Assembly: GCA_964017185.1 (NCBI GenBank)
Contig: OZ024876.1
Coordinates: 10,665,726-10,729,725, forward strand
Length of the DNA: 64,000 nt
Direction of reading: 5' to 3'
Origin: Rugalucina vietnamica
Taxonomy: Eukaryota > Mollusca > Bivalvia > Lucinida > Lucinidae
Below are positions 1 through 60,082 of the stretch, piece by piece. How positions within the stretch are numbered: position 1 is the stretch's first letter; each line of letters begins with the position of its first letter. Under the pieces are notes generated by a model. The model had not been told where the DNA came from, searched no databases, and saw only the letters and a list, made by a program, of their open reading frames with translations. Made by a program: the position numbers and the translations under genes.

Positions 1-78
1 TGCATAGCCTGTGTTTCACTGTCAAAGAGAGTTGGATATGAGACACTGAACGAGTATGGTACTGAAGGTGCCTATCAG
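1..78 (+). CDS. DHX34: DHX34 exon a (first copy of an 81-bp in-frame array)
   Basis: This encodes the stretch just after helicase motif Ia ([16 protein letters not shown]...AYQ). It ends in CAG followed by GT, phase 0. The window opens inside this exon. The same sequence repeats three more times without a break to position 321, each copy ending in CAG|GT, so the real donor could be at 78, 159, 240 or 321. All four options keep the frame into the next exon. Confidence 0.85.
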
Positions 79-321
79 GTATGCATAGCCTGTGTTTCAC
101 TGTCAAAGAGAGTTGGATATGAGACACTGAACAAGTTTGGCACTGAAGTTGCCTATCAGGTACGTATAGCCTGTGTTTCACTGTCAAAGAGAGTTGGATA
201 TGAGACACTGAACGAGTATGGCACTGAAGTTGCCTATCAGGTACGTATAGCCTGTGTTTCACTGTCAAAGAGAGTTGGATATGAGACACTGAACAAGTTT
301 GGCACTGAAGTTGCCTATCAG
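1..321 (+). repeat. Four tandem 81-bp copies of a helicase exon
   Basis: Units start at 1, 82, 163 and 244. Each is 27 codons and the whole array is open until TAG at 325-327. Copies 1 and 3 read NEYGT and copies 2 and 4 read NKFGT, so the array is built from a two-unit (162-bp) repeat. Copies 1 and 2 start with TGCATAGCC, copies 3 and 4 with CGTATAGCC. The window starts in the array, so there may be more copies upstream. Confidence 0.95.
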
Positions 322-3300
322 GTATAGAACGTTCAGACTCTGGTTGACATCCCTACTAAGCAGATGGTACATTCCTTCTTCTTCTTAAGTCCTAAATTTC
401 AAGCTTATAGCCTGCTTCTGTTATTGTACAGGCCGGTTTGTGTCGGACCTGGTCTGAAACCCAAATTGTTGGTTTTCCTCATACAAAGGCTCATATTATA
501 GTATAGAATTACTTATTGATTTGCAGGTTAGATTTGAGAAGACCAAGTCAAGATTTACAAGAATATTGTTTCTTACTGAAGGTAAGCATCTCACATATTC
601 AACCATTACAAAAACACACCAATGCAAGGTATAGATTTTTCATACACAGTAAAATCTGAAAATTTTCAGTTGAAAATTTTTTATATTTTTGCTCAAAACA
701 TTGATTTTGGGTACCCATTAAAACAGCCCCACTGAGGCAGTTCTAACTAGTACCCACAATCTATGTTCTCGATCAAAAATAAGGAAAAATGTAAAAACCT
801 TAACATCCCAGTTGTGCTATATGAATGTCACCGTTTGCTGCGCCGTCATGAATTAATACATCGCAATCTGCCGTCAAACATTCTGCGTTAATCACGATAA
901 TTCACAGTAAAGTAAAATTATTAGCTCGCCTGCACTAAGTGCACAGAGCTATTGTTGTCACCTCGGTGGTACCCGTTTACGTGTACGTTTACGTGTACGT
1001 CCGCGTCACACTTTCGGTTAAAGTTTTTAAAATTGTTATATCTTGATAGTCACTGACCAGAAATCATTCATATTTGGAACATTGCTGCATATGAGGGTTC
1101 TCTGTGATTTAGTGTGAAGGGACCCGTGGGGTCATGCCTGGGGGCGGGGCTAGAGGTCAATATCTAGAGCACCTTTGTACAATGCTCAGATGCTGTGTTA
1201 GTTTCTCATCAACTGTAAAGCCTAGAACTGTCAAACCTTACATATGACTTCTCCTCGATGTCCCGACTCGGTACCCACATTGACCTACTGACCTTGACCT
1301 ATATTTCATGCTCCAGTGACTTTGTCATTTTTGAAGCCAACCCTTAATATCTCATCAACTATAAAGCCTACAACCATCAAACCTTGCATATGGCTTCTAC
1401 TTGATGTCCCGACTCGGCACCCACATTGACCTACTGACCTTGACCTATATTTCATGCTCCAGTGACTTTGTCATTTTTGAAGCCAAATCTTAATATCTCA
1501 TCAACTATACAGCCTACAACCATCAAACCTTGCATATGGCTTCTCCTCGATGTCCCGACTGCACCCACATTGATCTAGTGACCTTGACCTATATTTCGTG
1601 CTCTAGTGACTTTATCATTTTTGAAGCCAAATCTTAATATCTCATCAACTATAAAGCCTACAACCATCAAACCTTGCATATGACTTCTCCTCGATGTCCC
1701 GACTCGGCACCCACATTTACCTAGTGACCTTGACCTATATTTCGTGCTCTAGTGACTTTGTCATTTTTGAAGCCAACCCTTAATAGTGTTGCAGATTTAC
1801 CTCACACGTTCATCTGCAATTCTCATTACGCAGTATACATTTCCACTCTAGTTATTAATAGTTTGTTTACAAGCAGTCTGTCTAAAATTAGATTATATTT
1901 TAGGATGATCGATTTAGGTTCTAGCTGGCTGCTTCGCTACTTTCACAGTGACTGGTTTCTTTCCTATGCATGAGTGAATGTTCCGGTGTATCTGATCTGG
2001 CCAAATACTGGGATCAGTCTCTGTGACGGTTGTGATGCAGAAATATAAATTCGGCTTGCGCGGTTGTCCGGGAAGAGAGAGGAGTGATGTGTGAAAGATG
2101 CTTTAGCACGCTTTATAATACTAGGATAATAAAGAAAAATGTTTCATTGTGGCTTCATTATTTTGTTTAAAATGAATGTCTCCTGCGGAGTAGAATAAAC
2201 TACAAAACAAGAGATTATTCATGCGGTCTTCGCTACCTCAATTTTAATAGCAACTAAATCTTGACGAAGATTTAACACTGGTGGCAGCGGCGGGATTACG
2301 ATCTTTAACATGGTTTCTGAAGAGAAATTTAAAATTAGTGTCTATTTTCGGCTTTATCAAGACAAATTCGAGGCACTTTTAAAGGAAAAGAACGAAACCA
2401 ACGAAAAGTTACTAAGAGATAACGCTCGCATTTCAGCCCATTTCCTTGGAGATGACGCGCCAGTTCTAGAGCATAAATATTAAGATATTTTGCTAGACTA
2501 AACATCAAATTTTCGGAAACACGCAACCTATGTGATTTATTACTGTTTTGTTTTACTCTTAGTTAAGGTTCAGTGCCACAATGGTATTTTGTGATCATTA
2601 TTGTGTAAGGATTTTCAAGTAAGAATTTGTGCATTTTGGCTGAGTAAGCATTCATTGATTTGTAAATGGCCGTGAGTATTGTGTCTAAATAATGGGCCCA
2701 AAAAAGAACATGAATTCAAATCAGGACAAATCGGGAGCTGCAGTCGATGTCGAGAGTGACACTGACGACGAGCAGCTGAGGCAGACTATTCAACAGCTAG
2801 AAGAAAGATTAAAATTAGCAAATGAAGAGAAAAATAAGGAAAGATCAAGAGCGGCAGCAAGAGAAAGAGAACTGGACACGTTAACAAACACCCTGAGGAG
2901 ACAGGAGAACAACGCAGCTGTAGAGAGAGACGCTTTGGTCAGAGAATATCAGGGTCGAATAAATGAACTCACGGCACTGTCAGACACGCAGTCAAATCGG
3001 GCACGCTCGCCAGAAGTTAGACCACATGATCAGGGGTTTCAAGCAAGAGCCCATGATGGTTTTCGTGGTCGCGTCCGTTTACAACCAAATTATGAAGTGC
3101 CAATGCCTAGACAGGCATTGTTTGATGGAAAAACATCGTGGGAAAGCTTCTTTCAGCCGTTTGAAGCATTGGCAGTTGCATGTGGATGGGACAGAAACGA
3201 GAAGTTATTTCGGTTAACGAGCTGTCTACGGGGTGAGGCAGCTGAATATGCGTTTGGGCAGTTGCCCCAAGACACACTTGGCAACTATACAGAGCTCGAA

Positions 3301-6300
3301 TGAGCGTTGGAGGCACGGTACAAGGAAAAACGTACGAGTTCATCCTATGTAGCCGAGCTGGAAAATCGACGCATGCAATCAAAGGAAAAATTGGCGGATT
3401 ATGTGGCGGATATTAAACGGTTGGTAATAAAGGGCTATCCAACCGCAGATTCCCAAACAAGAGAGAAAATAAATGTCAGACATTTTCTTAAAGGATTGCC
3501 CGATCAACAGATGGCCGTTGCAGTTGGCATGCGTGAACCTGGCACAATTGATGAAGCACGGCAAATTTTGGAGATGTATAATAGTTTAAAAGACGAAGTG
3601 AAAGGTAGTCGTGTTAGAATTGTGCAGCCAGGGGAGGAAGTGGATTCCCAATTCGTGACTGAGAAACGTCTAAAGGAATTCGGAAACGAAATAAAGTCCA
3701 ATATTGGCAAAAGGATAGATATTCTGTCACAAAAACTTGATAAAAGTACGGGAAATACGACAAGAGCAAAGTCACCGATTAGTCCGAGGCAGGACCAGGA
3801 AAATGGTGCATTTGGTGGTGCTCGCCCAAAAAGGCAAATTCGGTGCTATTCATGTAACGGCGAAAACCATATTTCGAGGAATTGCCCCAATAAGCAGCCC
3901 CAGGGCAATAGGAATAATGGTGTTCGAAATCAGGAAAACTAACTTGTGCCACTGCTGACGGCCTAGTGGTGGAACAAGACAAGTTTTGTAGTGTTAGTAG
4001 CATTAAACATGGAATGTCGATTTTGCTGCCTGTTGTAATTAGTAATTTGAGTGCTCAGCTTGTTTTAGATACGGGCGCGTGTGCCAGTATTTTATCAAAT
4101 GGATTGTATTATAGAATTCCACCTGAAAGACGGCCTGAGCTAAAACCGATTTCAAAATCGTTTAAACTGGAAGAAGCGAATGATAGCTTGTTACAAATAG
4201 AAGGCATGACGACCTTAGAATTCAAGATTAAAAACGATGCGTTTTCGTGGGATTTTTATATTGCTCCTATACGGGAAGATGGGCTAATAGGGTTGGATTT
4301 CTTGCAAGCTAACGAGTATGTGATGGGCGCAAAATCGGGTTTAAGATTGAATAATCGACGATATGAAACAGTAGTGGAAAAAGTGCCGTTGCGAGCTGTT
4401 AGGGTATTATGCAAGGAGAACGTTACAGTGCCGGCTGCATCAGAATTCATTCTTGAGGGTGAAGGAAATTATATGTCGCTATGTTCGGACTTTGCATTGA
4501 TAAGTCCCTGTCAGGATACAGACATGGGTGGTCTTATAATAGGCAATACCTTGGTTAAGACAAATCAAAATGGAGCTAATTTACCAGTTAGGGTAGCAAA
4601 TGTTTTGAGTGAAAACCTTGTCATTAAACGGGGGACAATCTTAGGCTATATGCAAAGTGTTGATGAAGGTGATATTATGGAGGACAATCCTGTAAATGAA
4701 ATGTGCCAAAAACGACCGAACATAAGTCGTGTTTCTAAAGGAAATAATGTTGACACGTCCTTGTGGTCCAAACCATTAAAGGAGCTTTTCGATAGATCAT
4801 GTGAAAACCTCACTGAAGATCAGAAAATAAGTTTAATGGAAGTGTTGGATAAATATAAAGAGGTTTTCTCCAGTTCTCCAATGGATTTAGGACGTACCAA
4901 TGTGGTTCATCATTCGATTCCCACAGGTTCTGCTCGTCCTATAAAACTTCCACCAAGGCGAACGCCGAGGGCATTTGTCGAACAAGAGGAGAAAATTATA
5001 AAGGACCAATTGGAGGCCGGGCTTATAAGAGAAAGTAATAGCCCCTGGAGTGCGGCTTTGGTGTTCGTGAAGAAAAAGGATGGAACGGTGAGGCCCTGTG
5101 TAGACTATAGACGATTAAATGCTGTAACAGCTAAAGATGCCTACCCCCTTCCTCGTGTACATGATTGCTTGGATAGTTTAGAGGGAGCACAGTGGTTTTG
5201 TAGCATGGATCTTACTCAAGGATTTTTCCAAATACCGGTCAAGGAATCCGACATAGAAAAGACAGCATTTTCTACTAGTAAGGGAGGCCTTTACGAGTAT
5301 GTTGTTATGCCCATGGGATTGTGTGGGTCGGCGAATACGTTCCAAGGTTGTGTTGAGTTGATTTTCAGAGGATTGAACTGGAGAACGCTTTTAGTATACA
5401 TGGATGACATAATATGTTTTGGGTCGACATTTGAGGAAACGTTGCAGAGGCTTGAAGAGGTCTTAAAACGTTTAATGTCTTCGAACTTGAAGCTGAAGGC
5501 TACCAAGTGCACTCTGTTTCAGCGTAGTGTCTCTTTCTTGGGATATAGGGTGACTAGCGACGGGATAATGCCTGCAATTGACAAAGTGAAGTACATTCAA
5601 TCCATTCCTGTGCCGAAAAACCTAACTGAACTTCGTCATTTCCTTGGATACTTGGGGTATTATAGGCGGTTTATACGCAACTTTTCAGAGAGAGCTGCCC
5701 CTTTGAATCGATTGATGGAGGCCGGTCAATCATTCATATGGACAGAGGATTGTCAAAAAGCATTCGTTGATTTAAGATCAGCATTGTTTGGGGACGAAGT
5801 GATGGCGTATCCAAGATTTGATGAAAAGGGTGGCATATTTATTGTGGACTGTGATTCAAGCAATTATGCTGTAGGCGGGTGCCTCTCACAGATGCAATGG
5901 TGTGAGCAAAGTCAGAGCGAGGTAGAGAGACCCATAATGTTTGCGAGTAAAACATTGGATAAGAGTCAACGACAATACTGCACAACTAGGAAAGAATTAT
6001 TAGCTGTCGTTACTTTTGTTCAGCAGTTTAGGCATCTGTTGTTGGGACGGAACTTTGTCATCAGGAGTGACCATTCGAGTTTGCGATGGTTAATGCGATT
6101 TAAGTCACCAACAGATCAACTTGCTAGATGGCTAGAAGTGTTATCTCAGTACGACTTTGTATTGTGTCATCGCAAGGGAAGTAAGCACGGCAACGCTGAT
6201 TTTTGGTCGCGAGTTGGTTGCGACCCTTACGAATGTGACTGTTATGACAGGAGTACCATTCTCGAAGAACTTCCTTGTGGAGGGTGCAAAACATGTCGGA

Positions 6301-9300
6301 AACGTCAGGAACAATGGAGCATTATGGAAGATGTGGATGATGTTGTTCCACTATTTGCTAGGTATGTTGGTGGCCGAGGCATGTCACGGGGGAAAGTGTA
6401 TCACTCTTGTGTCAACGCTTTCCTAACTCTGATTACCATGCTTTGTTGTGTCGTGAAAATCAGTACATATAGGATAAGGGGAATTATTGCTGGCTCCAAT
6501 AAGCTTTTCAACAGTGGCGTTGCAAAAGCATCGAGCGTCATTAAATCGGTCTGGTCAAAACGACTGAGACGTTTGAAACCGAGGATGTGCAACGAGAGTC
6601 TCACTGAACCACTCGTGTTCCAGTTTGGCTTAGGAAGTGATAGTAAGTCTGATGGAATCATAAGCCAAAGTGACAAAGTTTCGTCGAAAAATGGCAGTGT
6701 TCTATTGGAGCTGAAAAGATCATTTTTGGCAAGCTATCAACCGGAACAGGTTCAAAAGATGCAAAGGGACGATCCTGATATTGGGAAATTAATTCAGTGG
6801 AAATTGCATTCTGAAGTGAGACCTGGTCGTGATGGGGTGGCTGGAGAGTCGCCGTACGTGAGACATTTGTGGCTATTATGGGATCAGCTCTGTTTCAAGG
6901 ACGGGGTTTTATTCAAACAATGGGTTGCACACAAAGGGACGGAGTCATACCTTCAACTTGTACTGCCTTCATTTCTGAAGAAACAAGTGTTGGAGTCGGC
7001 ACATTCGGCTATAAGTTCAGGTCACCTAGGTGTGCAGAAGACAGCTTCGAAAATTCAACGAATGTTTTATTGGTACCAGTGGAAAAACAATGTTGAAGAG
7101 TATATCAGGAACTGTACAAAATGTGGGTCACGTAAGCGGCCCGCAAAAACGCCAAAGAGTCCATTGAAGGAGTACACGGTTTCATTTCCCATGGATAGAA
7201 TAGTCACAGACATCTGCGGGCCTTTTCCTGAAACTGACCGTGGCTCGAAATACATTTTGTGCGTGCAGGACTCTTTTACAAAATTTGTGGAATGTTATGC
7301 GATTCCAGACCAGAAAAGCAGTACAGTGGCTAGCAAAATAGTGTTTGAATTCTATGCCCGATTCGGCTGTAGTTTGGACATACATTCCCACAGGGGAAGT
7401 ACTTACATGTCGGAGCTGTTCAATGAGGTATGTCGACTTCTAGAGATAAAGAAGACTTCTACTTCAGGATTTAGGCCACAAGCAAACGGCCAAATTGAAA
7501 AATTCAATTCTGTGCTACTTAATATGATCTCTGCTTACGTAGATAAAGATCAGAAAAACTGGGATTTGTACCTTTCGTTGCTTACTATGGGTTACAACTC
7601 AACAGTCAATCCCTCGACAGGATATACACCTTGCAAGCTGTTCTTCGGAAGGGAGTTTATTCTGCCAGTTCAGCTACAAATTGGCTGTTTACCCGATAAT
7701 CCAGGTAAAAACTCGTACAATGAATATACGCAGAATTTGGATTTTAAGTTACAACAGAGCTTCCAAATAGTTCGAGAGCAATTAAAGAAGAACGCTTCAC
7801 GTATGAAGCGTGATTACGACACGAGAATCAGTCAGCACAATTATGAAGTCGGTGACCTTGTTTATTGTGTAGACCTGACAAAATCTGTAGGGCACTGCAA
7901 GAAGATTGACCCGAACATTTGGCGGGGACCTTTTGTTATTGTGAGAAAATTTAGTGACTTACTGTTCGAAATACAAGGGAAGCCGGGAACGAGATCAAAA
8001 ATTGTTCACCATGACCGAATAAAGCGTTATTTTTCAAACATCCTACCAGACTGGCTCCATCATAAAACTGGTTCGTTCCCGAAGGCGGAGTGCAAAACCA
8101 ATACTAAGAGACATGTTCGGAAGAAAGTTCCACTGTTTTCGCCTGAGAAGGGAGCCCCAAAGTCACGGAAAAGGAACAGTGAACAAAACAAGCAGAATAG
8201 GAACAAGAATGTAGGAAACAGTGAAAAGTCAGAGCAGGTTCAGGAACCGTTACCACTACGGAGGGGCTTGCGACAACGCAGGCCACCTAAGTTTTTCGGG
8301 TTGTAACTGTGTTCGCAGATGACGGCAGCTATCTTTATTCCCGGAATAAAACTTTCACATTTAATGGCGGTTTGGCACTAAATCAAGCAAACTTACATTC
8401 ACCATGAAATTTGTTTACATTTTTTACAAGTCAAAATTTTAACGACATATCATGGTTTTCAGATTATGTAGGGACAAAGCGGGGCGTGGGTCATATAAAA
8501 GAGCTTGATCTGGAATCCCCGGGCATTCTACGATTTTCACTTCTCTGAGAAATATTGTTCTAGTGATTCTAATTATAACGTAATGGATACAAGTGTGCGG
8601 TCGGACACTCCAGTTCAAGATGAGCGGAGGTTCAACTACTCCCCGGTGTCTGACCCATGGGGAGAGTTCGCCTTAACACAGTCAGGAACAGAGCAGGTGT
8701 TAAATAGGCTCAATAGCTTAGAAACTTTGGTGAGGGAACAACATCTAACAACGCGGGAATGTACATCAAAAGCGTTGAGAGAGTGCATTTGCATCGAACG
8801 GGGGATGCATGAAAAGCTGTGTAAGCAGCTGCAGTTAGTGAGCGAAGGCATATCTGCCATAAGGGACAGACATCAGGCAGACCCCGTGTTGATGTCGGGG
8901 ATTCTCGGACTTGTGAACTCGGCATTATTATACCTCCAAACAACAACACCTGCTACCGCCCCGGTGGTATCGTCAGTAAATATGGGTTTGCTGAACACGA
9001 GTGATAGTTCGTCGTCAGTACAAAAACAACAGCAACAACAACAGCAGCAACTGCAGCAACAACAACAGCAACAACAACAACAACAGCAACAGCAGCAACA
9101 ACAACAACAGCAAAAAAAAAACATTGATTGAAGCTGTGACAGGAATAAATGGGGACGGTTATAAAGATATAGTGGAAATTTTAGTTAAAATTTGATTCTA
9201 GTTTTATTGGATGCAGTTAGTAATTTAGTGCTTCATGTAGCTTGTGCTTTTATACATGTGTGAATGAGAATTATTGTGTGGATTTCATTTAAAGCAAGAA

Positions 9301-12300
9301 ATGTTCTAGTGCTGGTTTTCTTCGAGGTCAAATATTGGGAATTAATTGGATTCAAGACGGCTTGTATTCAGTAAAAGGGAGTTTTAAATTTACAAGAAAT
9401 GAATATGAATAATTGTTTGTTTCAGTCGTAGTGCTTGGATATAGTTATTGTTCTCTACTGTGTGGATATAAATGTGTAGTGTGTGTTATATAGAAATAAG
9501 ATTGGGAAGTAATACCAAATCTAAGCAGTGATGTTGGGGTTTCACAGTGAGTAAAACAGAACTCCGTGTTATCGGATGTCAAACTCAAGATTCGAAATAA
9601 CAAGCTATCTTACAACGGATTCCGATGGGTTCTGGAGCATGCTACTGATTGAACTTACTGGCTATACTTTATCAAGATCCTCGTGTGAATGATGGGGAAT
9701 GAAAGAACATTTGTAAGAAGAATAACTGCGACGCTCGGGTATGGTTAATATATGCTAGGACAATGGTCGAATGAACTAAACTTTTTACAACGAATATCCA
9801 GACTAACGTCTGATCGCTTGGAATTATGGTAAAACGTTCCATATGTGATGAGGCACGCGAGTAAAATTCCGGGACATACAATCATTACTCAGTAGTAACC
9901 TTGAGTAGAATTGAGACACAATATAACATTCTTGAACTCGGATAACCTGTAATGCGTGGGAAAATTGATCTAAAAGGAACTTATACTCGCTTAGTGGAGC
10001 GGCGGAAGGATAACGATACGAACTGTTGGCACTGGGACTTATCTGTAGGAAAATAACGCATGAACTGTGTTCTGAGATCAACGAATAAACTCACGATAAG
10101 CTTACGATAAAATCTGGGTATGACGGGCGGTTGGGAGCCGGGGCGATAAGAGGCCGGGATACGTTGCGCTCAAGGGATTTTACACACTTGCAGTTCGGCG
10201 GGCGGCCTGACGTGGCTGGCACTGATCTGTGTCGACGTTGGACGAGGCGTACGGGTCGGGGAGCTATGGTGGAAATTATGAAATGACTGTAGTGCCATTC
10301 GAATTGAAATATTGATTGCATGCTCATTTCTAAAATACGAAATCACTTTATTAGTTTAACTTAAACATTTATTAGTTTAACTAAATTAATTGTGGCACCT
10401 GTACTGAGCGACTTTGACATTAAAATACCGATATGGTGAACATATGGATAATGCATGCATGCGTGTAAGGGCTGAGTGATGGATATTGCAAGACTTATTT
10501 AGAAGGACATTAATGTGAGTTTGTGTGAGGATATAATATCCTATTCAAAGACGATGCCTGTGTTATTTGGACTTAATTCGAACTGATCGACAGGAAGAAA
10601 AACCGAGGACGGTTTGGTTTTAAGGGTGGGGGAGTGTTGCAGATTTACCTCACATTCTCATTACGCAGTATACATTTCCACTCTAGTTATTAATAGTTTG
10701 TTTACAAGCAGTCTGTCTAAAATTAGATTATATTTTAGGATGATCGATTTAGGTTCTAGCTGGCTGCTTCGCTACTTTCACAGTGACTGGTTTCTTTCCT
10801 ATGCATGAGTGAATGTTCCGGTGTATCTGATCTGGCCAAATACGGGGATCAGTCTCTGTGACGGTTGTGATGCAGAAATATAAATTCGGCTTGCGCGGTT
10901 GTCCGGGAAGAGAGAGGAGTGATGTGTGAAAGATGCTTTAGCACGCTTTATAATACTAGGATAATAAAGAAAAATGTTTCATTGTGGCTTCATTATTTTG
11001 TTTAAAATGAATGTCTCCTGCGGAGTAGAATAAACTACAAAACAAGAGATTATTCATGCGGTCTTCGCTACCTCAATTTTAATAGCAACTAAATCTTGAC
11101 GAAGATTTAACAATATCTCATCAACTATAAAGCCTACAACCAACAAACCTTGCATATGGCTTCTCCTCGATGTCCCGACTCGGCACCCACATTGACCTAC
11201 TGATCTTGACCTGTATTTCATGCTCCAGTGACTTTGTCATTTTTGAAGCCAACCCTTAATATCTCATCAACTATAAAGCCTACAACCATCAAACCTTGCA
11301 TCTGGCTTCTCCTCGATGTCCCGACTTTGCACCCACATTGATCTTGTGACCTTGACCTATATTTCGTGCTCTAGTGACTTTTTCAATAAAGTTTTTAGAA
11401 GTCTATATCTCTTGAACATGTTGATGGATCAAGTTGATACTTTGCATGTTGGTAGATATTGGTCTGAAATTTTATGCAGTACCATCATGACCCATCCTTG
11501 GTGACCTTGAGGTCAAGGTCACAGACTTAGAATTTTTTTGTTAAAGTTTTCGGTTAAAGCCTTTAGAAGTCTATATCTCTTGAACATGTACATTGATCAA
11601 GTTGATACTTTGCATGTTGGTAGATATTGGTCTGAAGTTTTATGCTGTACCATTGTGACCCACCCTGGGTGAACCTGAGGTCAAGGTCATGGCCTTAGAA
11701 ATTTTTGGTTAAAGTTTTGGGTTAAAGATTTTTGAAGTCTATATATCTCTATGTTGATGGATCAAGTTGAAACTTTGCATGTTTGTGGATATTGGTCTGA
11801 AATTTTATGCTGTACCATCACAACCCACCTGAGCGACCTTGAGGTCAAGGTCATTGGTCATAGATTTTGATAAGTTTAGTGGCAAAGCACAAGTCAGGCG
11901 AGCTACGCTGTCCTGCTACAGCTCTTATTTCTTAAATACACTTTTCACAAATAACTTCAAGGCTTACAGGCACATTAAGCTAACATGTATCATAAAAATT
12001 CCTTTAAACACTCACACTGTAATAAATGCCCATACCACTATTTGGATGCCAAAGCTTGCCATTTTATCCGTGTGTTTTGGAATTTCAGGAACCTCTAATA
12101 AACACACACTTTAAAAATTTTGGGAAAAATCCTTTATTTTAAGCGGTAAATGTCTAATTTTGCTGCTTTATTACATAACACACAAATCTATTTTTCTCTT
12201 GTAGTCCAAATAAATGAGCCGCCTCATGGGAAAACCAACAATCTGCATATGCGAAAACAAAGGCGCAGATCAGCTTCGCAGTAACCGCGAAGCTGATCAG

Positions 12301-18300: not shown

Positions 18301-18350
18301 AAGCAATTAACTATGTTAACCTTGTGTCTATTATTGTCACATGAAAATAA

Positions 18351-18395
<45 letters not shown>

Positions 18396-42300: not shown

Positions 42301-45300
42301 ATAAATGGTCATGGTCACACTTCAAAAGTGTGCTTAATCGACCATCAAGCATCAATCAGGATGCAATCGACAGACTTCCACAGATAGAGTGCAATGTTCT
42401 GTTAGATGAATTTCCTACCGTTACGGAAACAAGAAAAGCAGTTCAACAACTATCATCTGGCAAAGCCCCAGGTGCAGATGCAATTCCTGCCGAAGTTTAC
42501 AAGGCTGGGGGGCTACCCATGGCAGAGAAACTGACAGAGTTGTTTCACTGTATGTGGAGGAAGGAGGCTATCCCACAAGAATTTAAGGATGCATCCATAA
42601 TCCACCTATACAAGCGGAAAGGAAATCCTCAAGTCTGTGACAATCACAGAGGCATCTCCCTCCTATCAATTGCTGGGAAGATATTTGCAAAAATTCTGTT
42701 GAATCGTCTGAATGCTCATCTTGATCAGACGGGACTTATCTGTGAAAGTCAATGTGGATTCAGAAAAGACAGAGGGACAATAGACATGATCTTCACAGCA
42801 AGACAGCTTCAGGAGAAGCACAGCTAAGATGGACTGGCCATGTTATAAGAATGCCTGATGCGCGACTTCCAAAGAAAGTTTTCTATGGAGAACTACAGGA
42901 GGGAAAGCGCTCTCAAGGTGGCCAGAAGAAACGCTACAAAGACACCCTCAAAGCCTCTCTGAAGGATTTCGAAATACCAATGGGGTCCTGGGAACAGACT
43001 GCACAGGAGCGATCAAAGTGGCGAGGTCTCATCAACAAAGGAGCAGCTCTCTATGAAAAGAAGATAATCTGTGAAGCTGAAAGAAAGCGAAGAGAGCGCA
43101 AAGCCAAAACAAATGTGCCACCAGCAGACTCTATGACATTGACTTGCTCTACTTGCAACCGACAGTTTAGAGCCAGAATTGGCCTAGTCAGCCATCAAAG
43201 AACTCACCAACACACATCAGCACTATTCAAGAAATAATGATGGTCTTTCTCATTAGTGAGAGACGAACTATCAAATGGTCATGGTCACAGGACCAAGATG
43301 GCTGCCATGGCTATAAATAGCAAAAACCTTTAAAAATCTTTTTCTCCAGAAACAGAAGGCCTATGATTTTGAAACTTGGCATGAAGCATCAGGCAATGGG
43401 ACATCTACAAAGTTTATATAAATCGTGCCCCTTGGATGACCTTGACCTATTTTATGGCAAGGTCAACTTAGGTCGCCCTTGCATTTGAATGGGGAAAATT
43501 GTTAAAATGTCATTTGAAGGGCAAAACTTGCAGTAAATTGGCAAATGGACTGCAGTTTTATGTTTTCAAAAAGAAATTGACTCCAGGGGTTGCTCTGACC
43601 CGGCCCTGGGGTTATATAAATGTATAGTACCATTCTAGTCAAACAAGTTTATTGGTATATATCTCGGGTTTCAGGTGAGCGTTTACTGGACCATTGGTCC
43701 TCTGGTCTTATTTTTGCTACAAAACATAGATTGTGGGTACTTGTTAGAACTGCCTTGCCGAGGCAGTTCTAAAGTGTACCCACAGTCTATGACCTGAGCA
43801 AAAATAAGAAAAATATCAACACTTTTGTACTGAAATTTTTCATTTTTTACAACTATTAAAATCTCTGTATATTACATGGCCATGTTTTCGTAATGTGTAC
43901 TGAATTTCTGACACCATGCTTGTATACCTTTTGCAGCTGACCTTATCTGGACTCAAAATCAGTGTGTGCTGGCCCTGAGGTTATAAAACTTATCAAGCTC
44001 AGCTCAGCTGATACTAAAATTTATCCTGCTCATAAATGTTAAAATGCCAACAATTGTTAGCATTTTAACATTTATCAGCAGGATAAATTACAGGTTTGAG
44101 TGAAAAAAGTTCTATAACCTCGGGGCCTGGGTTTTGAATCCTACTGGTGCCAGGTTGTGTTTTTGAGCAAAGTACTGTCAGATTAAATCCCCACAGACCC
44201 ACTTGATCAGAGGAACCTGACTCTAAATTGTTGACCAGGACCTTAAATCACAAATGAAACAAACAAATGAGCCGCCTCACCAGAAAGCCAACAATCTGCA
44301 TATGCGAAAACAAATACACAGATCGCTTGTGCAACAAAGACGCAGATCAGCTGTGCAGTAACTGTCGGCTGATCAGCGCCTTTGTTTTCACTACACAGAT
44401 TGTACAATCCCTCTTCTTCTTAAATCCCAAATTTCAAATTTCTAGCCTGCTTCTATGACTCTACAAGCTGTAGTACCTGTTCAGAAACCACATTGTTGGT
44501 TTTCTCATGATGCGGCTCAGTTATGAAAACTGCAGGTTTACTCAGGCTTTGACATTGTCATATTTCAGATTGATATGTGATGGTTGGTTAGAGGTGGGTA
44601 TACCTGATGTAGACTCTGCCCAGGAGATTGTGTCCAGTGTTATACAGTTACGGGCTACCTGGGAAAACCTCCTTAAACTCAGACTTGAAGGTAGGTATGG
44701 ATAGCTGTATCAGTCTAGATGTGACAATGTTATCATTCATCATTTAACATTGACTACAAAAAGGTCCTTTTTTGGGTCTCTATGTCCCCAATCTACAGAG
44801 TAGCTATTCTACTGTGCTCAGCAGTAAGATAGGATGGAACTTAAGCTGTTGTCCATGTGTTATTTCTTAAACATATATTACATTAGCCACATCATGAAAA
44901 AACGGGCTTTTTGCCTATGTGAAAAAAAAGACGCAGATCAGTAACTGCATAGCTGATCAGCACCTTTGATTTTGCTACTCTGATAGTACAATAATTATTC
45001 CTCTTCTACTGCAATCCAACATTTCAAGCATCTAGCCTGCATCTGTGACTGTGCAGGCTGATTTGTGTCAGAACTGGTCTGAAACCCCTAAGACCAGTTT
45101 TCTTGTGTCGCGGCTCACCTGATTTTCCACCTTTTGTGCAGTAAAAATGTCAGAATTTGAATGTCAGAAGGTAGATTTTATCGGATTAATGTTCATATGG
45201 TCTTCAGGGTTTCCGACCAGGTAAGACTCAAACCGGCCTGTACTGTCACAGAAAAAAAGCCAGACACTTGAAATTTTGGATTAAGAGAGGAATTGTACAT

Positions 45301-48300
45301 CCGATTAGGGAAAACAAAGGTGCTGATCAGCTGTGCAGTTTTCTGCACAGCTGATCTGCACCTTTGTTTTTGCATAGGCAAAAATCTTGTTTCTCATGGC
45401 GCAGCTTCTATTGTATTTATACCCCCCGCAAAACGAAGTTTTAGGGGGGTATACTGTTTTCAGCCTGTCCGTCATTCCGTGATTCCGTCATTCCGTGATT
45501 CCGTCATTCCGTCATTCCGTCAACATTTGGACATTTTTGCTGAATAACTTGAGTAGCTTTTGCCTGATTTGTTTCAAATTTTCACCACACTTGCACCATC
45601 AGACAATACATGTGTGGTATGAATTTAGGGGCCAAAGGGTCAGTATTGTAAGAGTTATGGGACTTTTTAAGTCTTCCTATAACATGTTTGCCATAGTACT
45701 GAAAGTACATACTTTGTGAAATCAACTCCTCTTACAGCTTTCATTGTTTCCTTTTAATATATTGCTGATATGTTTCAGATATATTGCAGATGTGCATGAA
45801 TAATTGTCATGCTGAAAAAATCATTTTTGACAAATTTACAGCATTTTTAACTTAGCAAATTTTTCTATAATTGCTTATATTCAATAATGGTTGGTAGTGC
45901 ATACTTTGTGAAATCAACTCCTCCTAGGGCTTTCAGTGTTTTTTTTTCAGTACTTTGCAGACATGTTACAGACATATTGAAGATGTGCATGAAGAATTAT
46001 AATGCTGAAAAAATAATTTTTGACAAATTTACAGCATTTTTTAACTTTGCCATTTTTCGACTATTGCTTACATACATACTTTGTGAAATCAACTCCTCCT
46101 AGGGCTTTCAGTATTTCTTTTCAGTACTTTGCAGACATGTTATAGACATATTGAAGATGTGCATGAAGAATTATAATGCTGAAAAAATAATTTTTGACAA
46201 ATTTACAGCATTTTTTAACTTTGGCATTTTTCGACTATTGCTTACATACATACTTTGTGAAATCAACTCCTCCTAGGGCTTTCAGTATTTCTTTTCAGTA
46301 CTTTGCAGACATGTTACAGACATATTGAAGATGTGCATGAAGAATTATAATGCTGAAAAAATAGTTTTTGACAAATTTACAGCATTTTTTAACTTAGCCA
46401 TTTTTCGACTATTGCTTACATACAATAATGGTTGGAAGTGCATACTTTGTGAAATCAACTCCTCCTAGGGCTTTCATTGTTTCTTTTTAATTCTTTGCAG
46501 ATTTGTTCCAGATATATTGAAGATGTGCATGAAGAATTTTTATGCTGAAAATTTTAGTTTTGACAAATTTACAGCTTTTTAAACTTAGCCAATTTTGACC
46601 ATTTCTGCTTATATTCAATTATGGTTGATAGTACATACTTTGTGAAATCCAACTCCTCCTGGGGCTTTCAGTAATTCTTTTCAATATTTTGCAGACATGT
46701 TACAGACATATTGAAGATGTGCATAAAGAATTTTATTGGTGAAAAAATAATTTTTGACAAATTTACAGCATTTTTCAACTTAGACATTTTTCAACCATCG
46801 CTAATATACAATACGGCTGGTAGAGCATACTTTATGAAATCAAGTCCTCCTAGTGCTTTCATTGTTTCATTTGAATTCTTTGCACACTTGTTCCAGATAT
46901 ATTTCAGATGTGCATGAATAATTCTTATGCTGAATAATTTATTTTTGACAAATTTACAGCTTTTTTTTAGCATAGCCAATTTTTGACCATTTCTCATGAT
47001 AAATAATGATCAACAGTGTACAGTGAAATCAACAATAATTTTACTCCCTGAGCTTTCAGTATATTATTTAATACCTTACAGACATGAGTCAGACATACGG
47101 AGGATTTTCATGAAGGATTATAATGCTGAAAAGATATTTTTGACAAATGTTTTGCATGTTTGAATTAAAGGAAGTTATTGGCCTTAGATAATTTTGCGGG
47201 GGGTATACTGAAAGCCTTGTATTGAAAACTGCACTATAATGAGACACGTTATAATGAGGTTGAACTGTATATATAAATTATGACCTTTGGATGACCTTGA
47301 CCTATTTTACAGCAAGGTCAACATAGGTCGCCAATGCACTTGAATAGGGAAAACTTTTAAAATGTCATTTAAAGTGAAAGTCTTGCAGGAAATGGGCAGT
47401 AGGACTTAATATTAATGATTCTGAAAAAAATTGGACCCCAGGGGCTCATTTGCCCCAGCCCCGGGGCATTATACATGTATATTACCATAATATTCAAACA
47501 TCTCCTCTGAAACCGCTTGGCCAATCAAAGCTAAATTTCATGTGAAGCATCTATAGAATGGGGGAATCAATGTGTATATTAATAATCAAGGTCACATGAC
47601 CAAGATGGCCACCATGCCCATATATGGTAGAAACCCTTCAAAAATCTTCTTCTCCAGAACGGGTGGACCAATTTCGAAGAAACTTGGCATGAAGCATCGA
47701 TGACTCAAGTACTACAATTTATGTGATGACCTTGACCTATTTTAAGGCAAGGTCAACATGGGTTGCCAATATGTATTTGAATGGGTAAACTGTTAAAATG
47801 TCATTTGAAGGGAAAAACTTGTATGGACAGTATATTGATTATTCTGAAAAAATAATGGCACAAGGGCTTCACCTGCCCCTATACTCGGACTATTTTCTAT
47901 AACATTCGTATATACAGCAGATCTCAGGTGAGCGTTTACAGGACCATTGGTCCTCTAGTTAATTACCTTACAGACATGAGTCAGACATACGGAGGATTTT
48001 CATGAAGGATTATAATGCTGAAAAGATATTTTTGACAAATTTTCTGCATGTTTCACTCAAAGGCCTTTAAGTTATTGGCCTTAGATAATTTTGCGGGGGG
48101 TATACTGAAAGCCTTGCTTGCAGCCAATTTCTAGTTTACCATCAGATTGTTTTATGCATGTACATCCTTTTAACCATGCTTTATCTTGTCTGTGGGGAGT
48201 GAAGCATGACTTACATGTAGCATGCACTTTGGAATGCATCTAGTAAGGATTTTACGTAAATAAAGGCTGTGTTAACATCTGAATTCCCTTATGAAAACAT

Positions 48301-51300
48301 GTACATGACTTTTGTCTCCAGTTAAAGATGCCTGTTAGGCTGTAAATATTGTGTGACACTTGTATTGGTGCAACAATCAAGCCGCGTCGTGAGAAAACCA
48401 ACAATGTGGTTTTCGAATAGGTTGACACAAACAGAGCTGCACAAGCACAGAATATAGCTAGAGGCTGGAAATTTTGGATTCAGAAAGTAGAGAAATTGTG
48501 CTATCTGTGCAGAGAAAGCAAAGGCGCTGATCAGCTTTGCAGTTATACTGCAACTTTGCAGTTATACTGCAAATATCGGCTTCGCAGTTACTGTGAAGCT
48601 GATTTGCACCTTTGTTTTCGCATATGCAATATGTTTGTTTGCTCATGAGGTAGCACTTTTTTTTTTTCAAATGACCAGTAATAATGTTTATAGATGCCTC
48701 ATTGTGAAAACACCCGAATACAATTATATACAGTATTTTCAGCTTGACTGCACTAAGTGCGCTCATTCCAAAGCGTGTCACATTTGCGGTATAGTTTTTT
48801 AGAAGTCCAGATCTTGACAACCACTCATCAGAATGCATTCATGCTTGGACCATAGATACTCTGTAAGGGCTAATTCAGTTACTAAGCTTATAAATGACTA
48901 TTTCTACAGATACGTTTTTGTCTATGGAAACAGAGAAGAGGATAAGTCCCAGAGCAAGACGATTGGAGAAAATATTGGCCCAGAAATTGACAGAGTTTCT
49001 CAGCAGTGATGTCCTGTACACATTGAGACGTGTACTGGCTGCAGAGATGAAACATGTTTATGTGGGTCCTGACAAAGTTGGTTAGTGTCACCCCCTACAC
49101 ACACATCCATTGAGGCAGTGAGAAATTGATGGGCTGCTTGATGCAAAAAGCTGATAACAGACTGACCTCCTGAAGTGCACTTCTTTCATATAAATGCCAG
49201 CCCAGCAAACAGTGGTGTTACCCATCTTCACTTTTGTTTAAAAGACATAGTTGGGATTGCATAACACTTTCATGACTGTGAGCAGATAACATATAAGAAT
49301 CTCTATGTGGTATTATAAGAATCTTTAATGGGTGTAGATTGGAGGTACCGCACGGGCCAGTCATCCCGAGGGTGGAAAATGCCTATCTCCAATCGACACC
49401 CATTAAGGATTCTTTTTCTTGCACACCACAATGATTTACAGTCATTTTTAGCTCACCTGAGCCGAAGGCTCACAGGTGAGCTTATAGGATAGGCAGGCAT
49501 CCGTCGTCCGTCGTCCGTCGTCGTCCGTCGTCGTCCGTCCACAATTTCAAAGAAGAATATTTCTGAAGCTAGTGGGCCGATCTTGATCAAATTTAATGTG
49601 AACCATAATTGGGTTGGGGGATTGATGGTATTAGGTTTTGGAGCAGATTGTATCAAAATTGTGGTTTCCATGGCAACAGATAGGTCCCATAGACTTACAA
49701 TGGGAAAAACTAAAAAAATCTTCTTCTCTGAAACCACTAGGCCCACAGCTTTGATATTTGGTATGTAGCAATGGCTAATGGTCCTCTACATAAATTGTGC
49801 CATTCATGCCCCTGGGGTCAAATTTGGCTACGCCCCGGGGGTCGATAGTCTCCATAGACTTACTATGGGAAAAAATTCAAAAATCTTCTTCTCTGAAACC
49901 ACTAGGCCCACAGCTTTGATATTTGGTATGTAGCAATGGCTAATGGTCCTCTACATAAATTGTGCCATTCATGCCCCTGGGGTCAAATTTGGCCAGGCCC
50001 CGGAGGTTGATAGTCTCCATAGACTTACTATGGGAAAAAAATTAAAAAATCTTCTTCTCTGAAACCACAGGGCCCACAGCTTTGATATTTTGTAGGTGGC
50101 AATGGCTAATGGTCCTCTACATAAATTGTGCCAATCATGCCCCTGGGGACAAATTTGGCCACCCCGGGGGTCGATAGTCTCCATAGACCTACAATAGGAA
50201 AAAAAAACTAAAGAAGTCTTCTTCTCTGAAACCACTAGGCCAACAGCTTTGATATTTGGTATGTAGCAATGGCTAATGGTCCTCTACATAAATTGTGCCA
50301 TTCATGCCCCTGGGGTCAAATTTGGCCACGCCCCGGGGGTCGATAGTATCTGGCATAGACTTACTATGGGAAAAAAATCAAAAATCTTCTTCTCTGAAAC
50401 CACAGGGCCCACAGCTTTGATATTTTGTATGTGGCAATGGCTAATGGTCCTCTACATAAATTGTGCCAGCCATGCCCCTGGGGTCAAATTTGGCCACGCC
50501 CCGGGGGTCGATAGTCTCCATAGACTTACAATTGGAAAAACTAAAAAAGTCTTCTTCTCTGAAACCACTAGGCCCACAGCTTTGATATTTGGTATGTAGC
50601 AATGGCTAATGGTCCTCTACATAAATTGTGCCATTCATGCCCCTGGGGTCAAATTTGGCCACGCCCCGGGGGTTGATAGTCTCCATAGACTTACTATGGG
50701 AAAAAAATTCAAAAATCTTCTTCTCTGAAACCACTAGGCCCACAGCTTTGATATTTGGTATGTAGCAATGGCTAATGGTCCTCTACATAAATTGTGCCAT
50801 TCATGCCCCTGGGGTCAAATTTGGCCAGGCCCCGGAGGTTGATAGTCTCAATTGACTTGCTATGGGAAAAAAATTCAAAAATCTTCTTCTCTGAAACCAC
50901 AGGGCACACAGCTTTGATATTTTGTATGTGGCAATGGCTAATGGTCCTCTACATAAATTGTGCCAGCCATGCCCCTGGGGTCAAATTTGGCCACGCCCTG
51001 GGGGTAGATAGTCTCCATAGACTTACAATGGGAAAAACTAACAAAAATCTTCTTCTCTGAAACCAAAAGGCCCAGAGCTTCTATATTTTGTATGTAGGAA
51101 TGTTTGGTAGTCCCCATTATAAATTGTGCCAGTCATGCCCCTGGGTCAAATTTGGCCATGCCCCGGGGGTCAATAGTGTCCATGCATAGACTTTCATTGG
51201 TCGATTCTCAATTAATTTAAATCTCATGAGCTTACAATGTGATAATCTCTCAGGTGAGCTACAGGACCAATGGTCCTCTAGTTTGGCATTCTTTTGCGAT

Positions 51301-54300
51301 GTATTTTATTTAGAACCAGATCACTGCCAGCTTATTTGTTTATACTATCCATGCATTCATGCAGTAGTGTAGCAACTAGCCTTAGTGGAGACAAACAGTA
51401 CGCACCACAAAATAGTGCATTGAATTATCATGATTTCTGAAACAAATATTGACAAAATCTCTATGCGACTATCTGAATTTTTATTAAATGGGCCACAACG
51501 TGAGAAAATGTACCTTCGGACAATTTTTTGAGTATTAGAAAAACAAATTTATTTTGAATGTATGATGTTTCTAGAGTCTGTTAGTTTTTATATGACCAGA
51601 TTTGTTCCGTTATTTTGTGAGTTATGACCAATTTACTATATGAAGCCTACAGACGTTATTGTCCCGAAAAATGACGTCAAAGTTGTGTAATGCATTTCTG
51701 CATGTTAGTAGAGCTTTCAAAACTCGATGCATTTGCTTTAAACTGTTAAAGCACTGGCCAGACCCTATTGTTAGGATATAGATGCATACCATCCTTACAG
51801 GCAATCTGTCGTAATTATTTTGTCTATTTTATGATGATGTGGTTGCTATGGTTACTGTTTAACGATATATATATAGGAAAAGTATGTGTATTATGAGCTA
51901 AAACAAGGGCAGATAACTCCAAATATTGAAAAAAAATATGTTTACAAACTCATTCATTTGGTAGCCCAGTGTTCAAAGATTACAAATGCAGTGTTATTTC
52001 CAAAACTCATATTACATCACTTTTCAGCTTTTTGCTGCTTTCTACTAGTAATGTCAGAATGTCCGAAGGTACATTTTGTCGCGTTGAGGTTCAAATTATT
52101 ATTTACATGATATTTGCAAAGTAAAAACGCGATGTCACGCTTGGTTTAAGCGTCAGTACCCACTGTGATTTTGGAGGCAACGCTCCTTTTAAGTTTGCAT
52201 TTCACATGAGGTCGGGGTCTCATGGTTGAGAATTTTCCATAAAAAGTGGATTTAATCGGTGTCACCTGTATCCAAAGATGGGAATTAATGCAAACTTTAA
52301 TTGGAGTGGTACTAATAGAACGTAAAACAGCATGACTAAAAAGGGATCATAATATTTTCAGGTGAAAACTTGTCAGATACTTTACCATCAGGCTCTGCCA
52401 AGCCACACCCAGTGAAAGGTGGAAGGCAGCTGAATGACTACCTTACTCATGGCTGGTAAGTCACATTACAAAAACGATCCTATACAATGAACAGCACTAT
52501 ATTTTGGGTTGAATTTTTTTCCCATATCCTTCCAAGGCGGTTCTAGCCTTTACCCATGATAAGGCAGCCCCCGTGGCTGAGCGGTTAAGAGCGGGTGTGC
52601 CAGGTGGTTTTTCTTGGGGTTCTCCCGTTTTCGCCCCACCTACTGACTGGCCTGTCTCTTATGAGCTGAAATAATCTGTAAATGGACATTAAACTGAATC
52701 AAAAAAAAATAATATTTACACATGATAAATGTTTTGAGAAAACTATATGAATACTTGAAAAACATTTCAAATACATTTTAGCTGATGCTTTTCTGCTGTT
52801 GTTGGTAGCATGTTCGTTGTATCTTTTGGAAATTTCCCTAATAGAACATGCGATTTTATGATTGTCGGCTGTTTTCCAACATCAAATTACGCCATTTTTT
52901 TTAATATTTTAGGAATGCTTCTGAACTTTTATTCATAGCAATGAAACTATTCTCCCACCAAGGCCCAATCTTTTAGAAAATGAAGTTGATAACATGATTT
53001 CAGGATAAAAATATTTGAATGTTTGTGCATACTTTAGTGCCGTTTCTTAAGGGAAACACACAATTTTTTTGCCCCACTTGTCCCTGCCGCAAAGTAGAAC
53101 ACCGGTTATATCAAGCATCCATTATCATTTCAAATTGAATCAGATTTCTACAATAAGATATTGCTGCTTGGAATAGAATTAAGATTTCCATAATCAGGTT
53201 ATAGAACTGGCAACGCTAGCTAGAAATGATTATGTAATTAAGTACTTTAACTCACCTGAGCTGAAGGATACTAGGTAGTCATCTGGCGTCTGTCCGACTG
53301 TCTTCATCAACAATTTTCAAACTTCTTCTCTGAAACTGCTTGGCCAGTCAAAGCCAAATTTTATTTGAAACATCTTTAGAAAGGGGAACCAATATGTTTA
53401 TGATAATCCAGGTCACATGACCAAGATGGTCGTTATGCCCTTCAAGAATCTCCAGAACGGGTCAACGAAACTTGGCATGTAACATCGGGGACTAAGGTAC
53501 TACAATATGTATAAATCCTGATCCTGTGAGGACCTTGACCTATTTAACAGAAAGGTCAATAAAGGGTGACTATGCATTTGAATAGGGAAAACTATTTGAA
53601 AATGTCGTTTAAAGGGAAAATTTGCAGGAAATGAGCAAATGAACAAGAGTTTTGCTTCTCAAAGCGTATATATTCACCATTTTTGCATTATCGGCTGGTT
53701 TCCAGCTTACAAAAATCAATATTGGAAATACAGGTAACCAAAACCAACCTGACCTTGAGGTCAGGGTGATTTTGGTTACCTGTATTTCCAATATTGGTTA
53801 ATTCTAAGCTGGAAACCAGCCGATAATTCAAAAATGGTCAATAGAGGCAGAAACAAGAGTGCTCAAGAATTCCATACAATTTGTAATGACCACCACATCT
53901 ATGTGTATTAAAGAGAATGAAATTGACATTAAAGAGAATGAAATTGACATTAAAGAGAATGAAATTGACATTAAAGAGAATGAAATTGACATATAGCAAA
54001 AACAAAGGTGCTGATTGATCAGCTGACCTGGGCCTTTTGTTTTACATGTGCAAAAATGTGGTTTTCTCATTATGGGGCTCATGTGTTTAAGCTTGATAGA
54101 CGATGAGACAGCCAGTGCGTTGGGAGAGTATGGCGGCCTGAGTATGCAGCGCCACTGGACGTGTCCCAGGTGTGGGGCAGTAATGCTGGTTACCATCTCA
54201 GAGAGACTGGAACATGAAGCCCAGTGCCAGTCTCAAAACATTACAGGTAATCAGCTAATGATTTACTGAAACTTCACACAGCTTACAGAAAGATGGACCT

Positions 54301-59499: not shown

Positions 59500-59736
59500 C
59501 ATCAGGAAAACATGTCCGTGTAATATATATACCCCCTTAAACCCCACTTGTATACAGTAAAACTGGGGTATGCCTATTGTTACTTATTTTTGCTCCAAAA
59601 CATAGATTGTGGGTACTCGTTAGAACCGCCTCGCCGAGCAAAAATAAGAAGAATATCATTTTTTTCCAGTGAAAAAAAATTCATTTTTACAACCAAAACA
59701 TTTTTCTGTATATTGCATGGGCGTGTTTTCGTAATG
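59500..59736 (+). mobile_element. MITE-2 copy, centre deleted on one side
   Basis: CATCAGGAAAACATGTCCGTG, AACCCCACTTGTATACAG, AACCGCCTCGCCGAGCAAAA (half the central palindrome is gone) and the end TTGCATGGGCGTGTTTTCGTAATG (59713-59736). Confidence 0.9.
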
Positions 59737-59766
59737 TTCCTGTACAACATACACTTTCAAAATTTG

Positions 59767-59999
59767 AGCCGCGCCATGAGAAAACCGGATTTTTGCCTAG
59801 GCGAAAACAAAGACGCAGATCAGCTTCGCGGTAACCGCAAAGCTGATCAGCGCCTTTGTTTTCGCTACACGGATAGTACAATTTCTCTTCTTCTTAAATC
59901 CGAAATTTCAAGATTCTAGCTTGCTTCTGTGACTGTACAGGTCGGTTTGTGTCGGACCTGGTCGGAAACCCAAATTGTTGGTTTTGTCACGCACAGGCT
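59767..59999 (+). mobile_element. MITE-1, near complete
   Basis: GAGCCGCGCCATGAGAAAACC, hairpin GCGAAAACAAAGACGCAGAT and complement at about 59801-59865, end TTTTGTCACGCACAGGCTC. Confidence 0.92.
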
Positions 60000-60082
60000 C
60001 AAATGATATGACTTGTGTTTCCAGAGGTCGCCAAGCTTTCAAGAGTTTACCATGAGTCCCAGCATTTCTTATTAGGCAGTGG

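What the first reader, a model, noticed from the sequence alone, without database searches (positions are those of the whole stretch)
1..54924. MITE ends lie flush with splice sites throughout the DHX34 gene
Measured from my exon map, ends of MITE-1, -2, -3 fall within 25 nt of about 16 of 40 splice sites, ten of them within 12 nt. After donors 17435 (16 nt), 21181 (11), 29811 (8), 33851 (8), 36313 (8), 39024 (10), 52455 (8), 581 (22), 32803 (23). Before acceptors 25176 (6), 28758 (7), 36158 (12), 54092 (11), 40593 (18), 30729 (20), 36756 (21). By a rough count of about 100 element ends in about 52 kb of intron I would expect about two by chance. Six introns have it at both ends (21182-25175, 29812-30728, 33852-36157, 36314-36755, 39025-40592, 52456-54091). 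Either three unrelated families prefer exon edges (open chromatin, nucleosome linkers, R-loops) or introns arose from or were rebuilt by them, as proposed for introners.
Basis: partly seen in the sequence, partly recalled or inferred. Interest (0 to 1): 0.9.

Follow-up and report, generated by a model that had tools for sequence, protein, structure and literature searches.

The report
Mobile DNA crowding exon edges, clam
In a clam helicase gene, small mobile DNA elements end only 6 to 25 letters from exon edges far more often than chance, and one of the families shows a similar preference beside splice donors across the genome, the opposite of what is reported for mammals.

Summary
The window carries most of a bivalve DHX34 gene. 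Of 34 outermost MITE-to-exon gaps, 16 are under 25 nt; shuffling elements inside their own introns gives 4.1 (at most 11 in 20,000 shuffles). Six introns have it at both ends.

Two families carry it: M1 (~237 bp, 4-bp TSD) and M2 (~240-310 bp, palindromic, no TSD found). The third is not significant.

Genome-wide, exact M2 ends follow the donor motif AGGTRAGT at 0-22 nt 64 times, against 26 at 120-142 nt (P 4e-5). Exact M1 ends show little (56 vs 46, n.s.). The acceptor test has no far control and shows no excess over a crude estimate.

The introner reading is not supported: an intron's two ends mostly hold separate insertions, M1 TSDs lie inside the intron, and two intron positions appear shared with Mya.

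Best explanation: M2, and more weakly M1, entered existing introns with a bias for exon flanks, possibly helped by exons shielding the nearest element end from deletion. The targeting step is inferred.

The parts
527..54924 (+). DHX34 exons 527-581, 15846-16189, 17280-17435, 21074-21181, 25176-25272, 28758-28905, 29745-29811, 30729-30836, 32720-32803, 33666-33851, 36158-36313, 36756-36848, 37670-37816, 38873-39024, 40593-40703, 44569-44690, 48910-49080, 52362-52455, 54092-54246, 54767-54924 (stop)
   Evidence: tblastn, in-frame joins
604..828 (.). M2, starts 22 nt after donor 581
17451..17621 (.). M1, starts 15 nt after donor 17435, TSD AGAT (read from flanks); inserted at the left end of an M2 remnant (about 17624-17742; inference)
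21193..21346 (.). M2, starts 11 nt after donor 21181; M1 21347-21488 abuts it
24901..25169 (.). full-length M2, ends 6 nt before acceptor 25176
28547..28750 (.). M2 (distal part missing), ends 7 nt before acceptor 28758
29819..30054 (.). M1, starts 7 nt after donor 29811
30495..30709 (.). second, separate M1 in the same intron, ends 19 nt before acceptor 30729
32827..33283 (.). M2 starting 23 nt after donor 32803, apparently split by a nested M1 (32909-33144, TSD ATTT)
   Evidence: nesting inferred from model coordinates
33859..33884 (.). M1 end stub, 7 nt after donor 33851 (found by reading, below PWM threshold)
35918..36148 (.). M3, ends 9 nt before acceptor 36158 (inner boundary set by seed length)
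36321..36735 (.). M2 then truncated M1 filling 94% of intron 11; 7 nt after donor, 20 nt before acceptor
39034..39269 (.). full-length M1, starts 9 nt after donor 39024, TSD AAAT
40394..40575 (.). M1 (distal part missing), ends 17 nt before acceptor 40593
52464..52489 (.). M2 end stub, 8 nt after donor 52455
53991..54081 (.). M1 (distal part missing), ends 10 nt before acceptor 54092
12215..12450 (.). M1 reference copy deep in intron 1, TSD AAAT
59500..60001 (.). M2 (59500-59736) and M1 (59765-60001) side by side downstream of the gene

Best explanation
Two unrelated high-copy MITE-like families, M1 and M2, inserted into introns that already existed, with a bias for the DNA just outside exons. 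Insertions inside exons or within the last ~6 nt of a splice site are lost by selection, so survivors pile up directly outside. The enrichment is shown for both families in DHX34, and genome-wide at splice donors for M2. That it comes from insertion rather than survival, and its cause, are inferred: exon chromatin (positioned nucleosomes, gene-body methylation, open linkers) is the likeliest cue. Exons may add to the effect by protecting the nearest element end from deletion. In 7 of 19 introns the element ends only 6-20 nt before the acceptor. Because animal branch points usually lie further upstream (general knowledge), the 3' splice signals there would be element-derived (inference, untested).
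For: DHX34: 15 of 50-58 TIR ends within 25 nt against about 1 expected; 16 of 34 gaps against 4.1 in own-intron shuffles. Genome: M2 left end after AGGTRAGT 35 at N0-22, 18 at N23-45, 12 at N120-142, antisense control 8. Replicate with the other M2 end: 29 at N0-22 against 14 at N120-142. Pooled 64 vs 26, P 4e-5; 21 of the 64 lie at N0-4, where the far rate predicts 5.7. 22 of 30 fetched loci have an open frame of 40 or more codons up to the donor (no control for chance was run). Near and far elements do not differ in divergence (M1 9 vs 20 copies, P 0.52; M2 5 vs 7, P 0.37), as a standing insertion bias predicts. Another repeat family in the same introns has 0 of 9 ends within 60 nt.
Against: Exact-TIR M1 is barely enriched at donors genome-wide: 56 near, 46 far, antisense 26; P 0.19. 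DHX34 is therefore unusual for M1, and it was picked because it looked striking. M3 is not significant. The M2 excess at N23-45 over far (18 vs 12) is not significant (P 0.18). The acceptor-side M2 count (237) is no higher than a crude density estimate (244), and its far control never ran. Near-donor counts are only 1.9, 1.3 and 1.4 times crude density estimates for M2 left, M2 other end and M1 (18.6, 21.7, 40.2), which rest on 6-13 sampled ends and 8 sampled motifs. No chromatin data were available.
Confidence: 0.55

Rival explanations
1. Survivorship: elements landed at random, but deletions removed those deep in introns, while an exon beside an element blocks deletions that would reach the splice site, so exon-side ends survive.
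For: Of 14 nhmmer-called elements within 40 nt of a splice site, the exon-side end is intact (within 5 bp) in 13 and the far end in 6; the far-end count would be 7 if the split call at 17451/17550 is taken as one element.
Against: No significant age difference between near and far elements (M1 median divergence 0.288 vs 0.294; M2 0.257 vs 0.240), though samples are small. Genome-wide, 24 of the 30 fetched exact-end M2 beside donors reach the far end of the model, yet such copies are enriched. Far elements also keep their exon-facing end more often than the other (19 vs 11 of 27), so the asymmetry is not unique to near ones.
Confidence: 0.2
2. Introns were short when the elements arrived, so any insertion fell near both splice sites; later insertions enlarged them.
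For: Intron 11 is 94% MITE with 27 nt left over; the six two-ended introns leave only 16-27 nt outside the outermost elements.
Against: M2 density already falls within the first 22 nt after donors (N0-4 21, N5-10 16, N11-16 18, N17-22 9 hits), which intron length cannot explain, since introns are not that short. In introns 7 and 14 two M1 copies flank the same intron, hundreds of nt apart.
Confidence: 0.1
3. Introner-like origin: the elements created these introns by inserting into exons.
For: Element ends flush with splice sites at both ends of six introns.
Against: Separate copies, in three introns of different families, at the two ends; perfect M1 TSDs inside the intron; splice sites not in the elements; Mya protein P0101 lacks exactly exon 12, so introns 11 and 12 appear shared with Mya.
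Confidence: 0.05
4. M2 recognises a donor-like sequence motif (GTRAG) rather than exon chromatin.
For: Highest density at 0-4 nt past GTRAGT; 3 of 11 full copies in the sampled stretches have GTRAG or GTAA in the 25 nt left of the element (by eye; no control).
Against: 22 of 30 near hits have long open frames up to the donor, as true exons would; two DHX34 M2 copies sit 6-7 nt from acceptors, which lack the motif.
Confidence: 0.1
5. DHX34 is a chance extreme among many windows read, apart from a mild M2 bias.
For: M1 genome-wide 56 vs 46; the window was chosen by a reader looking for oddities.
Against: M2 alone gives 7 of 15 ends, P 4e-9, and M2 is supported independently genome-wide. M1 in DHX34 has P 5e-7 to 3e-6.
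Confidence: 0.1

Closest known systems
Introners / introner-like elements (PMC9860276, passages read)
   Same: Short elements, some with TIRs and 4-bp TSDs, tied to splice sites; introner sites are reported to favour nucleosome linkers.
   Different: There each intron is one element that brings or recruits its splice sites at a new position. Here the elements lie inside older introns, several per intron, and the splice sites are outside them. Words beginning with mollus or bivalve do not occur in that paper's main text.
TE depletion zones at mammalian intron ends (PMC3088655, passages read)
   Same: The same quantity is measured: distance from intronic TE to nearest exon.
   Different: Mammalian TEs are under-represented within at least 50-100 nt of exons; here M1 and M2 are over-represented in DHX34, and M2 beside donors genome-wide.
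MITE-like repeats in Lucina pectinata haemoglobin introns (PMC4732748, passages read)
   Same: About 210-bp TIR repeat with a self-complementary core in bivalve introns; no TSD could be found.
   Different: No link to splice-site distance appears in the passages I read; I did not compare the sequences.
Spy transposons (described in PMC4482050, passages read)
   Same: No target-site duplication, as for M2.
   Different: Spy inserts within AAATTT; M2 flanks do not show this by eye.

Membership tests
MITE (M1) | short non-coding element with terminal inverted repeats | tested here: met
   236-239 bp, ~26-bp TIRs
MITE (M1) | target-site duplication | tested here: met
   4-bp TSD in six window copies: AAAT, AGAT, AATA, ATTT, AATT, AAAT (AGAT read from flanks); not seen in all copies
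MITE (M1) | high copy number | tested here: met
   36 in 180 kb of sampled stretches
MITE (M2) | short, TIRs, high copy | tested here: met
   palindromic, about 235-308 bp when full, 19 matches in 180 kb
MITE (M2) | target-site duplication | tested here: not met
   flanks compared by eye: one copy (L036) has a 4-bp match; a 1-bp duplication cannot be ruled out
Introner | element is the whole intron | tested here: not met
   separate elements at the two ends, with other sequence between in five of the six two-ended introns
Introner | splice sites carried by element or TSD | tested here: not met
   near splice sites lie 6-23 nt outside the element; M1 TSD only 4 bp
Introner | intron position is new | tested here: inconclusive
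   introns 11 and 12 appear shared with Mya; the other 17 could not be tested
Spy group | insertion within AAATTT without TSD | tested here: not met
   flanks by eye; group definition from PMC4482050
Known transposase superfamily of M1 or M2 | autonomous partner with matching TIRs | not tested
   no autonomous copy was sought

The most novel reading that the evidence does not exclude
An animal MITE family (M2) whose integration is aimed at exon edges, through exon-positioned chromatin or transcription/splicing-linked DNA states. It would keep rebuilding intron ends across a genome and replace branch-point regions with element sequence, a step short of becoming an introner.
Probability: 0.3. 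Interest if true: 0.8.

Novelty: new variant of a known kind. Interest (0 to 1): 0.6.

Why it matters
In mammals, transposable elements close to splice sites are depleted and taken to be harmful. An animal genome where a MITE family accumulates within a few nucleotides of donors would be a natural test bed for how transposons meet exon chromatin, how splice signals survive replacement by foreign DNA, and what an introner precursor could look like.

Tried and rejected
Introner origin was rejected (see rivals). Rfam scan of the window: no match at the gathering thresholds. The 61-nt M1 DNA query against the own genome found nothing, perhaps because common words are skipped, so I used patterns. 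A 17-base piece of the M1 end in viral contigs: 10 hits, one with a weak M1 profile match, not used. Intron ages from gaps in 120 homologous proteins were informative only for introns 11 and 12; hamster, Alosa and Elysia gaps were ambiguous, and vertebrate gap ends near residues 448, 520 and 654 do not match clam introns. Downstream exons: no Pfam match at E 0.01 in 10 ORFs chosen from 55-64 kb. A gene-family test in other genes (PF00063) did not complete. Inferring acceptors in the 30 donor loci gave ambiguous exon starts. The M2 acceptor count (237) is not evidence: a crude density gives 244.

Full report
What is there. The window is 64 kb of contig C8 (63.7 Mb) of a 1.09-Gb, 47-contig assembly and carries most of a bivalve DHX34 gene. 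The best bivalve relative listed, Ruditapes philippinarum, is 87% identical over 78% of the query.

The elements. M1 is about 237 bp with ~26-bp inverted ends and a 4-bp, A/T-rich target duplication, perfect in six window copies. M2 is about 235-308 bp when full, a near-complete palindrome; comparing flanks by eye I see no consistent target duplication. M3 is about 230 bp, its inner limits partly set by my seeds. Densities in 18 sampled 10-kb stretches are 2.0 M1 and 1.06 M2 per 10 kb.

The proximity is real in this gene. End detectors were seeded from ends at least 59 nt from any splice site and then retrained on all hits; one shuffled window gave no false hit. 15 of 50 intronic ends (58 at a looser threshold) lie within 25 nt of a splice site, about 1 expected: M1 7 of 27-35, M2 7 of 15, M3 1 of 8. 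Keeping each element in its own intron and shuffling positions, 16 of 34 outermost gaps are under 25 nt against a mean of 4.1 and a maximum of 11 in 20,000 shuffles; in introns of at least 1 kb it is 11 of 22 against 0.8. No gap is below 6 nt, which fits selection on the splice sites themselves. Another repeat family in the same introns (Helitron-like is my label, from no call) has 0 of 9 ends within 60 nt, a small control.

It is not one element per intron. In introns 7 and 14 two separate M1 copies hold the two ends; introns 10, 11 and 18 have different families at the two ends. M1 at 17451 sits at the end of an M2 remnant, and M1 at 32909 appears to lie within an M2, so insertions came in several rounds; in intron 3 the M2 was probably near the donor first. 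The Mya protein P0101 lacks exactly the residues of exon 12, best read as a skipped exon, so introns 11 and 12, including the one that is 94% MITE, very likely exist in Mya too. The elements therefore most likely entered old introns; for the other 17 introns this is untested.

Genome-wide test. With exact end sequences and the donor motif AGGTRAGT, the left M2 end was found 35 times at 0-22 nt, 18 at 23-45 and 12 at 120-142; the antisense motif gave 8. The near count includes one near-identical locus pair, and the mid count a pair plus an overlap with a near hit; after removing these, near against far stays significant (34 vs 12, P 0.0008) and mid against far is not (16 vs 12, P 0.29). The other M2 end gave 29 near and 14 far (P 0.016 alone). 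Pooled 64 vs 26, P 4e-5; 21 of 64 fall at 0-4 nt, where the far rate predicts 5.7. 22 of the 30 fetched loci have at least 40 open codons running into the donor, as true exons would; no chance control was run. M1 gave 56 near, 46 far, 26 antisense, P 0.19. So M2 has a genome-wide donor-side bias; M1, in exact-end copies, has at most a weak one, and its strong excess in DHX34 remains unexplained. Crude expectations from sampled densities (18.6, 21.7 and 40.2 for the three near counts) are higher than the antisense counts and rest on few sites. For acceptors the near count of 237 matches a crude density expectation of 244, and the far control did not complete, so that side is undecided outside this gene.

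Mechanism. The simplest account is an insertion bias for exon flanks, with insertions into exons purged, leaving a halo just outside. Similar divergence of near and far copies favours insertion bias over survival. Intact exon-side ends in 13 of 14 near copies, against 6 of 14 far-side ends, suggest that survival may also contribute. Short ancestral introns cannot explain a density that falls within the first 22 nt. Which cue is read (nucleosome edge, methylation, motif, transcription) was not tested here.

Known context. In mammals the zone within at least 50-100 nt of exons is depleted of transposable elements (PMC3088655, passages). Introners are linked to splice sites but make new introns (PMC9860276, passages). 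MITE-like repeats are known in bivalve introns (PMC4732748, passages), and MITEs take a considerable share of bivalve genomes (PMC10294476, passages). The papers listed by searches (capped lists; for instance 6 of 1,105) include none whose title or abstract start reports MITE ends enriched beside splice sites in an animal. One listed, PMC11782384, on direct repeats near intron borders, was not opened. No paper was read whole.

Noticed in passing
window 3304-8306, intron 1: LTR-retrotransposon frames: zinc knuckle, reverse transcriptase, RNase H, integrase domains; the Ty3/Gypsy-like label is mine.
   Followed up: no
window 1-320: Four tandem copies of a unit of about 80 bp made of a DHX34 exon plus its donor; the true donor of the first exon is therefore ambiguous.
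   Followed up: no
window 28906-29190 and 36849-36950: The ends of two exons are repeated in tandem directly into the following intron.
   Followed up: no
window 45706-47038, 49523-51181, 21826-23485, 34529-35877, 41276-42295: Tandem arrays with units of about 174-194, 165 and 455 nt.
   Followed up: no
window 17621-17624, 21346-21347, 24882-24901, 59736-59765: M1 and M2 ends lie next to each other (0-28 nt), also outside the gene; no formal test was done.
   Followed up: partly
G000:C8:10659366-10659394: M2 end just before an acceptor-like TTTNCAGG about 6.4 kb upstream of the window, possibly in the 5' part of DHX34; letters could not be fetched.
   Followed up: no
L033 and L034 (C4:17.88 and 18.03 Mb): Near-identical sequence with the same M2 one nt past GTGAGT at two places about 140 kb apart, probably a duplicated gene.
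   Followed up: no
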